DNA from: Saprospiraceae bacterium
Lineage (GTDB): Bacteria > Bacteroidota > Bacteroidia > Chitinophagales > Saprospiraceae
Assembly (NCBI GenBank): GCA_013002475.1
Contig: JABDJM010000402.1
Span: forward strand, 1-11,314
Length of the DNA stretch: 11,314 bases
Direction: 5' to 3'
The notes below the pieces were generated by a model, which ran no database searches, was not told the origin of the DNA, and saw only the letters and a list, made by a program, of their open reading frames with translations. Position numbers and translations under genes: made by a program. How positions within the stretch are numbered: the stretch's first letter is position 1; every line of letters begins with the position of its first letter. Of this stretch, positions 1,882 through 5,373 are shown one piece after another.

Positions 1882-2012
1882 ACGCGGGTTTTTTGTCGCG
1901 CTAAAGCGGGTTAAAAAAGTAAGTTGACAGCTTCCTTCAGTATTTTCCAGAAACTATGTAAGTATCAGCTTTTTTTCCAACGCCTAATATCCGGAAAAAG
2001 TTTCCAAAAGAG

Positions 2013-2041
2013 AAAGGGCAAACCCAATGGGTTTGCCCTTT
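2013..2041. terminator. Bidirectional terminator beyond the sod-tail gene
   Basis: AAAGGGCAAACCC (2013-2025) and GGGTTTGCCCTTT (2029-2041) form a perfect 13-pair stem with a three-base loop. On the minus strand it lies about 30 bases past the stop of the superoxide dismutase gene and is followed by CTCTTTT. On the plus strand a short T run follows. Confidence 0.9.
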
Positions 2042-2071
2042 TAACATTTTATACAAGAAGCTTACGTATTT

Positions 2072-2683
2072 CTACTTACGCTTTCTGCTTGTTGCCTTTC
2101 TTAGGCTCGCTTTTGCGCGCGTAGGCTTACGCTTAGCTGTAGTACGCTTTCTTGTCGTAGCCCGCTTCTTAGGAGCAGCTTTACGAGTTGTCCGCTTTCG
2201 CGTCGTAGTCCGCTTCTTAGGAGCAGCTTTACGAGTTGTTCGCTTCCGCGTCGTAGTCTTCTTCCGAGTCGTAGCCCGCTTCTTAGGAGCAGCTTTACGA
2301 GTTGTCCGCTTCCGCGTCGTAGTCTTCTTTCGAGTCGTAGTCTTCTTAGCGGCGGCCCGTTTTCTGGTAGTAGTCCGCTTCTTAGGAGCAGCTTTTTTCG
2401 TTGTGCGTTTCCTAGTGGTGGTTTTCTTAGCGGCGGCTTTTTTTCTAGTCGTAGTCCGCTTCTTAGGAGCGGCCTTTTTAGTTGTACGCTTCTTAGCAGC
2501 TGTACGCTTCTTAGGAGCGGCCTTCTTTGCTGTAGTTTTCCGTCTTGTAGTAGTCTTCTTTTTTGCAGGAGACTTCTTTGCTGTAGTCCGCTTTTTAGCG
2601 GTTGTACGTTTTTTGGTCGTACGCTTTTTGGCTGCTGGCTTTCTTTTAGCAGCCTTTTTAGTAGTGGTCTTCTTAGTAGCCAT
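2072..2683 (-). other. Lys/Arg-rich H1-like tail region, possible internal translation start at Met222
   Basis: Met222 of the fused frame (ATG at 2683-2681) begins MATKKTTTKK, which reads like the natural N-terminus of a stand-alone histone H1-like protein. The 25 or so bases before it are AT-rich (TATAATTTAACAAAATC, then AAAA), like A-rich Bacteroidota leaders and unlike the coding sequence around them. Two readings fit: one fused protein, or a fused protein plus a separate 203-residue basic protein started internally. No stop or frameshift separates the two parts in this sequence. Confidence 0.5.
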
Positions 2684-3346
2684 TTTTGATTTTGTTAAAT
2701 TATAAGAAGAATTCCCTGCGGCTGCATTTGCAGAAACCGCAGATTTAAAGTTCTTTTCTACCTGCGCCCAATTGATTAGGTTAAAAAAGGCGGCGATATA
2801 ATCTGGTCTTCGATTTTGATATTTTAAATAGTAAGCATGCTCCCAAACATCCAGGCCTAAAATTGGGATGCCCCTATCTTCTGCAACATCCATAAGTGGG
2901 TTGTCCTGATTAGGAGTAGAGCTGATAAATAGATTCCCTGATTTATTTACTGAAACCCAAGCCCATCCCGATCCGAATCGGGTGCCTGCTGCCTTGGCAA
3001 ACTCTTCCTTAAAACTGGCAACACTTTTAAAGGCTCTATAAAATGCTCTTCCAAAGTTTGATCGCTTACTAGGCAACCCTCCCCCGGTAGGAGAAAGTAT
3101 CTTCCAAAAAAGATCATGGTTGTAATATCCACCTCCGTTGTTGCGAACACCATTTCCATGCTTTCCTGCATTGGCCAGAATTTCTTCAATAGAAAGAGAT
3201 TCAAGTTTGGTCCCTGCAATTGCCGCATTTAGTTTCTTGGTATAACCAGCATGGTGTTTGCCGTGGTGGATGGTCATCGTACGCTCATCAAAGTGTGGTT
3301 CAAGGGCGTTTGCTGCGTACGGTAAATTAGGTAAGGTGAATGTCAT
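2072..3346 (-). CDS. Mn-type superoxide dismutase fused to a histone H1-like basic tail
   Basis: The ORF encodes 424 residues, about twice the usual 200 or so of this enzyme. Residues 1 to about 204 are a complete Fe/Mn superoxide dismutase, which turns superoxide into peroxide and oxygen. The metal ligands are all present: His27, His77, Asp166 and His170 (the last two in DVWEHAYY), plus the gateway Tyr35. Gln147 in the STPNQD segment, with Gly at the alternative position in GGGYYNH, is the pattern of Mn-type enzymes. There is no signal peptide, so it is probably cytoplasmic. A short Ala/Ser/Asn linker (205-221) leads to residues 222-424: of these 203 residues only five are not Lys, Arg, Thr, Ala or Pro, and none is acidic or aromatic. 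AAPKKR occurs six times (276, 292, 319, 352, 374, 390). This resembles bacterial histone H1-like proteins that bind DNA. The tail opens with MATKK after an AT-rich stretch, as a separate gene would. SOD assignment is firm; the tail's role is inference. Confidence 0.9.
   Translation of the reverse strand: MTFTLPNLPYAANALEPHFDERTMTIHHGKHHAGYTKKLNAAIAGTKLESLSIEEILANAGKHGNGVRNNGGGYYNHDLFWKILSPTGGGLPSKRSNFGRAFYRAFKSVASFKEEFAKAAGTRFGSGWAWVSVNKSGNLFISSTPNQDNPLMDVAEDRGIPILGLDVWEHAYYLKYQNRRPDYIAAFFNLINWAQVEKNFKSAVSANAAAGNSSYNLTKSKMATKKTTTKKAAKRKPAAKKRTTKKRTTAKKRTTAKKSPAKKKTTTRRKTTAKKAAPKKRTAAKKRTTKKAAPKKRTTTRKKAAAKKTTTRKRTTKKAAPKKRTTTRKRAAAKKTTTRKKTTTRKRTTRKAAPKKRATTRKKTTTRKRTTRKAAPKKRTTTRKRTTRKAAPKKRATTRKRTTAKRKPTRAKASLRKATSRKRK
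2160..2540 (-). repeat. Degenerate tandem repeats coding the basic tail
   Basis: Within the tail the coding strand carries six near-identical copies of GCTGCTCCTAAGAAGCG (AAPKKR; third-base variants only), interleaved with repeated Thr-Thr-Thr-Arg-Lys and Lys-Arg-Thr-Thr-Arg-Lys blocks. Spacing between the AAPKKR copies varies (16, 27, 33, 22 and 16 residues). Because even the synonymous positions are largely kept, the array probably grew by DNA duplication rather than by protein-level selection alone, and its length may vary between strains. Confidence 0.8.
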
Positions 3347-3432
3347 TTGACATGGGATTTTGTTAGGTATTAAAAGTCAAAAAAAAAGTCATCTTTTAAA
3401 TAGCTAAACATAAATCTTCGAAAGCGTTGAGT

Positions 3433-3440
3433 CAAATATA
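3433..3440 (-). promoter_or_regulatory. Candidate -7 element for the sod-tail gene
   Basis: On the minus strand this reads TATATTTG, a complete match to the Bacteroidota TAnnTTTG element. It would give a transcript leader of about 80 bases. No TTG is found 17-23 bases upstream, so the call is tentative. Confidence 0.35.
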
Positions 3441-3617
3441 AAAATGTTCTTTAAAGTATACTAGGCAGATACACAAATGTTACCTACGGAAAATCTGTAC
3501 TTGAGACTCAAAAATGATGCCCAGGTAACAAGTTGATAAAAACCACATCTTAAATTAATGCAAACTCAAAATTGAATTAGATCTTTTTGAAAAGTGCAAT
3601 AATGAAAATTTTATAGA

Positions 3618-3663
3618 CACTTTTCAGGCTCGTTAGTGCTTACAAAGCATGCATAGAAAAGTG
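3618..3663. repeat. Nested inverted repeats in the sod-fumC spacer
   Basis: The outer arms CACTTTTC (3618-3625) and GAAAAGTG (3656-3663) are exact complements. Inside them TGCTT (3637-3641) and AAGCA (3645-3649) form a second short hairpin around ACA. Together they could fold as a stem with an internal bulge in RNA. No T tract follows, so it is not a terminator. Confidence 0.4.
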
Positions 3664-3722
3664 ATAATGTCTTTAACCTTTTTGATGTCATTGATTGGTT
3701 TTGTTTTTACACTACTTTCAGT

Positions 3723-3745
3723 AAACCCTTTCCCTATAAGGGTTT
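3723..3745. repeat. Perfect 8-bp inverted repeat in the sod-fumC spacer
   Basis: AAACCCTT (3723-3730) and AAGGGTTT (3738-3745) pair perfectly around a seven-base loop TCCCTAT. There is no T run on either side, so a terminator role is unlikely. It may be a protein-binding site or an RNA hairpin in a long fumC leader. Confidence 0.45.
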
Positions 3746-3851
3746 GCACGTTAAAGACAATTAAACCTTAAGTTTTCCTTTAACCAGAAACAATAAAACA
3801 ATACTCAACAAGAAGCAAAATCTTTGATACAAATACGCTAATCAAAAACAC

Positions 3852-3867
3852 TTGAAGTAAACTTCAA
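3852..3867. promoter_or_regulatory. 16-bp palindrome, candidate operator upstream of fumC
   Basis: TTGAAGTAAACTTCAA is a perfect 7-2-7 inverted repeat, 108 bases before the fumC start. The size and symmetry are those of a site for a dimeric helix-turn-helix regulator. No regulator is encoded in the window and I do not recognise the motif as a known family's site. Confidence 0.45.
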
Positions 3868-3975
3868 CTAGAACTCGAATTAGTGCATAAAAAAAGCACA
3901 AAAATTTATTTGTAATGATGCAAAAGAAAGAGCCAAAATTCATTTTATCGGTACCTTTATGACCTAAAAAAAAAT

Positions 3976-5373
3976 ATGAGTTTTAGGAAAGAAAAAGATA
4001 GTATTGGGATAATTGAGGTGCCATCGAAGGCATATTGGGGAGCGCAAACCCAAAGAAGTTCTCAAAACTTTAAGATCGCGAATCAGACAATGCCGATAGA
4101 AGTAATACAAGCTTATGCGATACTTAAGAAAGCCGCTGCGATAACTAATGCGGAGTTAGGTGTACTAACAAAAAAGAAAGCCACCCTTATTAGCAAAGTT
4201 TGCAATGAGATTGGATCAGGATTATTAGACGACCAATTCCCTCTAGTTGTTTGGCAGACTGGGTCTGGTACCCAAACGAATATGAATGTCAATGAAGTCA
4301 TTGCAAACAGAGGTCATGTCTTACAAGGTGGAAGATTGCGAGACAAGAACAAAGTGTTGCATCCAAACGACGATGTTAACAAGTCGCAATCATCCAATGA
4401 CACCTTTCCTACGGCAATGCACATAGCAGCCTATGATATGCTTGAAAAAACCACCTTGCCAGGACTCAGAAAACTGAAAAAGACACTGGACAGAAAGGCA
4501 AAGTCTTTTTCAAAAATCGTTAAGATTGGCCGAACCCATTTAATGGATGCCACACCCGTCACACTTGGCCAGGAATTGAGCGGTTATGCATCTCAATTAG
4601 AACATGGAATCCAGGCCATAAAGAATACTCAGGGGCACCTTAGAGAATTAGCACTTGGCGGGACTGCAGTTGGAACCGGGCTGAATACTCCCAAGGGATA
4701 TGATAGAAAAGTTGCCCGCCATATTGCAAAGATCAGTGGTCACCCCTTCGTAAGTGCAAAGAACAAATTTGAGGCCCTTGCGGCTCATGATGCCCTTGTC
4801 GAAGCACATGGAGCATTAAAAACGGTTGCGGTATCACTGATGAAGATCGCAAATGACATAAGGATGCTGGCCTCAGGGCCCCGTTGCGGCATAGGCGAGA
4901 TCACCATTCCCGCAAATGAACCCGGATCCAGCATAATGCCAGGAAAAGTTAATCCTACCCAGTCCGAAGCAGTAACAATGGTCTGTGCCCAGGTCCTTGG
5001 AAACGATGTAGCCATAAATGTTGGAGGGGCAACCGGCCATTTTGAATTAAACGTTTTTAAGCCGATGATGATCACAAATTTCCTTCACTCAGCCCGAATG
5101 CTTGGAGACGCGGCAAGCTCATTTAATGACCACTGTGCTGTTGGAATTCAACCAAACAAGAAGGTTATCAAAGAAAAGCTGGAAAACAGCCTCATGCTTG
5201 TAACCGCCTTGAACACTAAGATAGGCTATGACAAGTCTGCTGAAATCGCAAAGAAGGCCTACAAGGAAGATACTACCCTTAAAGAGGCAGCAATGGCTTT
5301 GGGTTACCTGACAGCAAAAGAGTTCGATGCCTGGGTAAGGCCTGAAGCAATGGTTGGAACGATAAAAAAATAA
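3976..5373 (+). CDS. fumC: Class II fumarate hydratase
   Basis: This 465-residue protein has the usual length of class II fumarase and interconverts fumarate and L-malate in the TCA cycle, as a cytoplasmic homotetramer without an iron-sulfur cluster. The three conserved regions of the fumarase/aspartase superfamily are present in order: [18 protein letters not shown] near 95-112, [16 protein letters not shown] with the catalytic His188, and the flexible catalytic loop [13 protein letters not shown] with Ser318. [14 protein letters not shown] (129-142) is the substrate B-site/active-site region of fumarases rather than aspartases. The start MSFRKEKDS fits the family; the leader before it is A-rich without a Shine-Dalgarno. 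It is divergent from superoxide dismutase and is followed directly by a hairpin that overlaps the stop codon. Class II fumarase resists superoxide, so the pairing with sod suggests a shared oxidative or iron-limited response (inference). Confidence 0.96.

What the first reader, a model, noticed from the sequence alone, without database searches (positions are those of the whole stretch)
2072..3346. Superoxide dismutase with a 203-residue histone H1-like C-terminal tail
Seen: one uninterrupted frame joins a full Mn-type SOD (all four metal ligands, Gln147, Tyr35) to a tail in which 198 of 203 residues are Lys, Arg, Thr, Ala or Pro. Known: the SOD family is normally about 200 residues; H1-like tails of this composition bind DNA or other polyanions, and mammalian extracellular SOD3 uses a much shorter basic tail to bind heparan sulfate. 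Inference: the enzyme may be held on the nucleoid, giving local superoxide protection of DNA, or on an anionic polymer, or the tail may compact DNA under oxidative stress.
Basis: partly seen in the sequence, partly recalled or inferred. Interest (0 to 1): 0.82.

Follow-up and report, generated by a model that had tools for sequence, protein, structure and literature searches.

The report
Superoxide dismutase with histone-like tail
A group of uncultured bacteria make their superoxide-removing enzyme with a long, positively charged, histone-like tail that probably ties the enzyme to DNA or another charged polymer inside the cell.

Summary
One frame (2072-3346, minus, 424 aa) joins a complete Fe/Mn superoxide dismutase to an 18-residue linker and a 203-residue tail: 198 residues are K/T/R/A/P, net charge +99, none acidic. 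It is not a chimera or frameshift. Both other genomes held for the genus carry the same fusion at the same place beside fumC, with tails of 260 and 141 residues. Repeats inside each tail lie multiples of three apart and differ mostly at third codon positions, so the tail is maintained as protein. In the relative rated 100% complete it is the only SOD found. Three other genera of the family have shorter basic tails. Ten tails of 20+ residues do not form one clade (AU p 0.015); one origin for the seven of 40+ is not rejected (p 0.29). Most likely the tail is a disordered polyanion tether that keeps the main SOD on the nucleoid, a built-in form of the published 'tethered antioxidant' idea. Polyphosphate or RNA binding, and an H1-like packing role, are live rivals. 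No binding was tested.

The parts
2072..3346 (-). Whole gene: SOD + linker + tail, 424 codons and stop TAG
   Evidence: orthologues L032 (481 aa) and L033 (364 aa)
2738..3346 (-). Fe/Mn superoxide dismutase domain, residues 1-203
   Evidence: Pfam PF00081 and PF02777; solved relatives match query residues from 1-5 to 194-207 in the 60 listed; SOD-like order of helices and strands in the model
2684..2737 (-). Linker, residues 204-221, poorly conserved
2075..2683 (-). H1-like polycation tail, residues 222-424, K/T/R/A/P, net +99, in-frame repeats
   Evidence: predicted without structure, pLDDT below 50 apart from single residues
2681..2683 (-). Met codon at the first residue of the tail, present in 3 of 3 genus members (222, 222, 224): relic or possible internal start
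   Evidence: initiation not tested
2075..2134 (-). C-terminal end KRKPTRAKASLRKATSRKRK; RKPxRxKxSLR shared by the three genus members
3432..3449 (-). Likely promoter element: block GAACATTTTTATATTTGA shared by the three orthologues; resembles the Bacteroidota -7 motif TAnnTTTG (motif recalled)
   Evidence: seen by eye
2013..2041 (-). Terminator-like hairpin after the tail
   Evidence: 13 pairs; similar hairpin with T run after the stop in L032 and L033, seen by eye
3976..5373 (+). fumC (class II fumarase), divergent neighbour; context, not part of the protein
   Evidence: Pfam Lyase_1 and FumaraseC_C; divergent in 28 of 29 loci that reach fumC (23 of 24 distinct genes)

Best explanation
The main superoxide dismutase of this bacterium (the only one found in the complete relative) carries a long disordered polycation at its C-terminus. 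Shown: a single in-frame gene, an intact SOD domain, a tail kept as protein, conservation in the genus. Inferred: the folded part pairs into the usual SOD dimer, so two tails of about +99 each leave it; they bind the DNA backbone without sequence preference, as H1-like tails do, and keep the enzyme on the nucleoid. Superoxide would be removed beside the DNA and its bound iron: the 'tethered antioxidant' idea made permanent by a covalent tail. Tails grew by in-frame repeat expansion, probably from the short Lys-rich ends seen on many related SODs.
For: Intact SOD domain and invariant ligands. Same fusion in 3 of 3 genus genomes, in synteny. Tail repeats keep the frame and vary mostly at third positions. 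Tail +99, +111, +65 with no acidic residue. Only Fe/Mn SOD found in G001, rated 100% complete, and no Cu/Zn SOD there, so the tail is on the general SOD. Divergent fumC neighbour. Weak matches of the tail to H1-like models: NCBIfam hist_H1_lk_Burk 29.1 bits for the window's protein (cut-off 80), Pfam HC2 63.7 bits for G001 (cut-off 40). Related tails on HU proteins. Basic ends of 20+ residues arose more than once. Literature: tethered antioxidant / armour hypothesis (PMC3784963), AlgP and MDP1 tails.
Against: No binding, location or activity data. A polycation does not single out DNA; AlgP's tail protein also associates with polyphosphate granules. Many family members with untailed SOD evidently do without. 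The window's own protein has no Pfam HC2 hit at E 0.001. The genome is a fragmented assembly, 81.6% complete.
Confidence: 0.5

Rival explanations
1. The tail targets another polyanion: polyphosphate granules, or RNA and ribosomes. The SOD then sits there, for example with Mn-loaded polyphosphate, rather than on DNA.
For: The tail is pure positive charge; AlgP, with a Lys-rich tail, was identified as associated with polyP granules (PMC9239181, passages).
Against: The same paper reports DNA binding by AlgP tail peptides; no polyP gene was looked for here.
Confidence: 0.2
2. The protein is mainly a DNA-packing protein: the tail is the cell's H1-like protein, fused to SOD, perhaps also made alone from the internal Met at residue 222.
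For: In G001 the Pfam HC2 model matched only this gene, three overlapping places; no Hc1 in G000, G001 or G002. The Met is at the tail start in 3 of 3 genus members although the linkers differ; in the window it follows an A/T-rich stretch.
Against: The HC2 model missed the window's own tail, so it can miss others. No promoter was recognised inside the gene, but the scan covers sigma-70 type only. The internal start was judged by eye, not tested. Short-tailed relatives lack the Met (P0006, P0007, P0128).
Confidence: 0.14
3. The tail has no selected role: repeat slippage at the gene's end is tolerated because the tail is disordered and soluble.
For: Tail lengths differ widely (203, 260, 141) and repeats are present; relatives do without a tail.
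Against: Third-position bias of repeat differences in three genomes, no acidic residues over 141-260 residues, shared C-terminal motif, more than one gain. Codon-level bias could in part reflect rejection of harmful residues only.
Confidence: 0.12
4. Assembly chimera, lost stop or frameshift: two neighbouring genes read as one.
For: The window is a whole contig of a fragmented genome (593 contigs), and a Met stands at the tail start.
Against: Same join in two other assemblies, one of 80 contigs rated 100% complete; ends and frame conserved; no Lys/Arg-rich gene next to sod in 24 untailed loci within the 0.5-1.5 kb held.
Confidence: 0.02

Closest known systems
Bacterial Fe/Mn superoxide dismutase (E. 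coli MnSOD, SodA)
   Same: Same fold family and catalytic residues; [quoted passage not shown]
   Different: About 205 residues with no tail; its DNA association comes from the folded protein, here a polycation about as long as the enzyme is added
AlgP / PhaF KPAA-repeat tails (Pseudomonas)
   Same: Long Lys-rich, low-complexity disordered C-terminal tail; DNA binding and polyP granule association reported (PMC9239181, passages)
   Different: Carried on a helical or phasin domain, not on an enzyme; KPAA repeats rather than K/R/T-rich repeats
MDP1/HupB and HupS (HU with Lys-rich tail)
   Same: Disordered basic C-terminal tail on a folded domain; the MDP1 tail is needed for compaction (PMC5974015, abstract); HupS-like proteins are among the nearest tails
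   Different: The folded part is itself a DNA-binding HU domain
Hc1/Hc2 and Burkholderia/Bordetella-type H1-like proteins
   Same: Composition; weak model matches
   Different: Free-standing; curated cut-offs not reached by the window's protein
Adenylate kinase with H1-like tail (P0239, P0291, P0339, P0353)
   Same: Metabolic enzyme with a 160-220-residue basic tail
   Different: Different enzyme; function of the tail unknown to me
Mammalian extracellular SOD3 (recalled)
   Same: Basic C-terminal tail that holds a SOD on a polyanion
   Different: Cu/Zn fold, short tail, secreted; no common descent

Membership tests
Fe/Mn superoxide dismutase | Both Pfam domains over their cut-offs | tested here: met
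   98.7 (cut-off 27) and 124 bits (cut-off 20.9)
Fe/Mn superoxide dismutase | Four metal ligands and second-sphere Tyr and Gln | tested here: met
   H27, H77, D166, H170, Y35, Q147 invariant in six tailed SODs
Mn-specific rather than Fe SOD | Metal specificity | tested here: inconclusive
   Mn model 212.8 bits above Fe model 182.2, both under their cut-offs 363 and 348; metal needs an assay
Fe/Mn superoxide dismutase | Dismutase activity | not testable with these tools
   needs enzyme assay
Bacterial histone H1-like proteins (Hc2, Burkholderia type) | Curated model over cut-off | tested here: not met
   Window protein: no Pfam HC2 hit, NCBIfam hist_H1_lk_Burk 29.1 of 80 bits. G001's tail does pass Pfam HC2 (63.7 of 40 bits). 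Works like, not filed as a member
Bacterial histone H1-like proteins (Hc2, Burkholderia type) | Long Lys/Arg/Ala/Thr/Pro-rich disordered tail | tested here: met
   198 of 203 residues, no acidic residue; predicted without structure (six aligned sequences only)
Tethered antioxidant / nucleoid-associated protein | Binds DNA and is located on the nucleoid | not testable with these tools
   composition and literature parallels only

The most novel reading that the evidence does not exclude
In this genus the superoxide dismutase has become the cell's H1-like chromatin protein: one gene makes an antioxidant enzyme whose two disordered tails bridge and compact DNA and, from the conserved Met at the tail start, perhaps a free H1-like protein as a second product, so DNA packing and superoxide defence are set by one promoter.
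Probability: 0.13. Interest if true: 0.85.

Novelty: new variant of a known kind. Interest (0 to 1): 0.62.

Why it matters
Whether SODs protect DNA by sitting on it has been argued from the loose association of E. coli MnSOD with DNA and from nucleoid proteomics. A SOD with a covalent polycation of 65 to 111 net charges, maintained as protein in three genomes and sitting on the only SOD found in a complete one, is a natural experiment: removing the tail separates dismutation from location. It also suggests that H1-like tails can be grafted onto metabolic enzymes by repeat growth at a gene's end (adenylate kinase shows the same). Ten searches of the open library (titles and abstract starts seen; eight named superoxide dismutase) showed no description of such a SOD; most subscription journals are not in that library.

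Tried and rejected
Fusion with a neighbouring H1-like gene: in 30 loci at the sod place (24 untailed) no Lys/Arg-rich gene lies next to sod in the 0.5-1.5 kb held; one 60-aa frame of 32% K+R lies 1286 bases away in L089. A free ancestor of the genus tail was not identified. The end of a free H1-like protein in G011 (RPSLSRRRTTVKKK, L064) resembles the genus motif, which is only suggestive.

The tail searched as a protein in 12 relatives found nothing, but it also missed G001 and G002, where the tail is known, so it is void. A codon pattern of period four did not match the known tails either and says nothing.

Rate of evolution: tailed SODs lie slightly farther from an untailed group (median 1.00 against 0.94, n 10 and 73, Mann-Whitney p 0.024), but the rows are not independent and tail length does not correlate (rho 0.13, p 0.24). 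fumC identities do not set the genus apart. No rate claim is made.

Number of origins: the ten tails of 20+ residues are rejected as one clade (p 0.015), the seven of 40+ are not (p 0.29), the groups having been named after the tree was seen.

Limits of the counts: print only the best-scoring matches; the rest were not looked at for tails. The tree used 107 of the 150 SOD domains that passed my end and length filter, from 237 proteins. Comparison of the model with solved folds was not run: machine busy. A genome-wide census of basic tails was not possible.

Full report
What is there. On the minus strand, 3346-2072 is one frame of 424 codons. Residues 1-203 are a complete Fe/Mn SOD: Sod_Fe_N 98.7 bits, Sod_Fe_C 124 bits; H27, H77, D166, H170, Y35 and Q147 are invariant in six tailed SODs (their roles are recalled). 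Matches to the 60 listed solved relatives end at query residue 194-207. Then follow 18 linker residues and a 203-residue tail of K63 T55 R36 A35 P9 (198 of 203), net +99, with no D or E. The AlphaFold model has a SOD-like order of helices and strands with mixed confidence (block means 58-95 up to residue 210) and no structure in the tail (pLDDT under 50 from 212 on, bar single residues); only six sequences were aligned and pTM is 0.50.

It is real. Two other genomes of the genus are held. Both have the same protein: G001, 481 aa, tail 260, genome rated 100% complete in 80 contigs; G002, 364 aa, tail 141, also seen as P0002. The neighbours agree: fumC divergent on one side; the unnamed lipoprotein-like gene, the redoxin-like gene and a thioredoxin-like gene on the other (lipoprotein-like and thioredoxin-like judged by eye). 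Inside each tail, self-similar stretches are a multiple of three apart in 746 of 746, 3835 of 3835 and 622 of 622 aligned bases, and mismatches fall on codon positions 1/2/3 as 45/22/85, 150/86/382 and 41/22/64. A codon-wise count agrees: 94 synonymous and 61 other differences in the SOD frame of the window's tail, against 21/136 and 3/144 in the two other frames of that strand. So the tail grows and shrinks in the SOD frame with its amino acids held. A block GAACATTTTTATATTTGA upstream of the gene is shared by the three, and the one minus-strand terminator-like hairpin in 1900-4000 lies after the tail. One promoter, one gene and one product is the simplest reading.

One oddity. In all three, the tail's only Met stands at its first residue (222, 222, 224), though the linkers differ. 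In the window it follows an A/T-rich stretch. It may be a relic of a once separate gene or an internal start; I could not test this.

How common. Of the SOD ends I read in 51 loci from a sample of 60 relatives and the window's genome (one gene appears twice), 3 have a basic tail, all of this genus. In 398 family genomes 377 had a match; among the listed matches the tailed ones are the three of this genus and G074, G132 and G098 of three other genera. In 298 genomes of the order, the window's family included, the listed matches gave no tailed one beyond G000 and G001, judging by open-frame length and by how far the match reaches along the profile. Of 236 proteins (the window's plus 235 listed by two searches, each scoring about 8000 candidates), an end was found in 232, and 9 have a basic extension of 20+ residues, the window's included; P0003's 59 residues are not basic, and P0015's 30 end in DEEE with net +4. 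Named genome loci: 0 of 79 readable. The family is probably Saprospiraceae in the wide sense: the contig of G022 has the length (21390) of the longest contig of P0226, named Phaeodactylibacter (inference).

How it arose. Many related SODs end in one to four Lys, others in RKPRAKKK, RKPAKKKK or basic ends of 17-23 residues. On a tree of 107 SOD domains without the tails, ten basic tails of 20+ residues (G001 added) need seven changes, at least four forced by well-supported branches. Nine lie in a group of 76 rows (support 86/93) that end in Lys, a Lys stub or a tail; P0176 lies elsewhere, beside P0175 with a 17-residue basic end. The genus is a clade (100/100) in a nine-row group (95/87) with P0140, which ends KPKKKK. 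Holding the ten together is rejected (p 0.015); holding the seven of 40+ residues together is not (p 0.29). Short basic ends thus lengthened more than once; whether the very long ones share an origin is open.

What it does. In G001 this is the only Fe/Mn SOD found, and no Cu/Zn SOD was found in eight genomes, the three of the genus included. It is divergent from fumC in 28 of 29 loci that reach fumC (23 of 24 distinct genes; 92 SOD loci looked at). In E. coli, sodA and fumC both belong to the superoxide response (recalled). So the tail is on the general SOD. AlgP tail peptides bind DNA and AlgP associates with polyphosphate granules (PMC9239181, passages); the MDP1 tail is needed for nucleoid compaction (PMC5974015, abstract). 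E. coli MnSOD associates non-specifically with DNA and SODs appear in nucleoid preparations, the 'armour hypothesis'; the same section reports heavy unavoidable contamination of such preparations (PMC3784963, section 3.4 read; PMC3211030, passages). I infer that the tail is a permanent form of that tether. Binding of polyphosphate or RNA, and a primary role in DNA packing, remain open. G001 shows HC2-like matches only in this gene and no Hc1, which fits packing, but the HC2 model missed the window's own tail, so the test is weak; G002 has a second HC2-like match in a 442-residue frame and a third in a broken frame.

Known or new. The SOD fold is known. H1-like tails are known on HU and are seen here on adenylate kinase and others. 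Their union on the main SOD at this length was not found in ten searches of the open literature. I file it as a new variant of a known kind.

Noticed in passing
L034 1538-2581, L036, L192: Second SODs in G033, G004 and a Flavobacterium assembly carry a different, roughly 110-residue C-terminal extension, not Lys/Arg-rich, ending in or near LHDTFHxIxGLCxH; it may be a separate SOD fusion.
   Followed up: no
P0239, P0291, P0339, P0353: Adenylate kinases with H1-like basic C-terminal tails of about 160-220 residues.
   Followed up: partly
L064 (genome G011): Free-standing 394-residue frame made almost wholly of AKRKTTAKK-type repeats in the same family, ending SLSRRRTTVKKK.
   Followed up: partly
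L057, L059, L080: Proteins with a basic Lys-rich N-terminal half and a C-terminal DDLTKIEGIGP-type end (looks like a helix-hairpin-helix) in G021, G034 and G002.
   Followed up: no
window 2403-2705 (+): A 100-residue frame antisense to the tail, with counterparts in L032 and L033; it follows from the tail's codon make-up and looks spurious.
   Followed up: yes
window 3347-3975 with 3976-5373: The divergent sod-fumC pair is kept in the family: 28 of 29 loci that reach fumC, which may mean shared regulation of two superoxide-response genes.
   Followed up: partly
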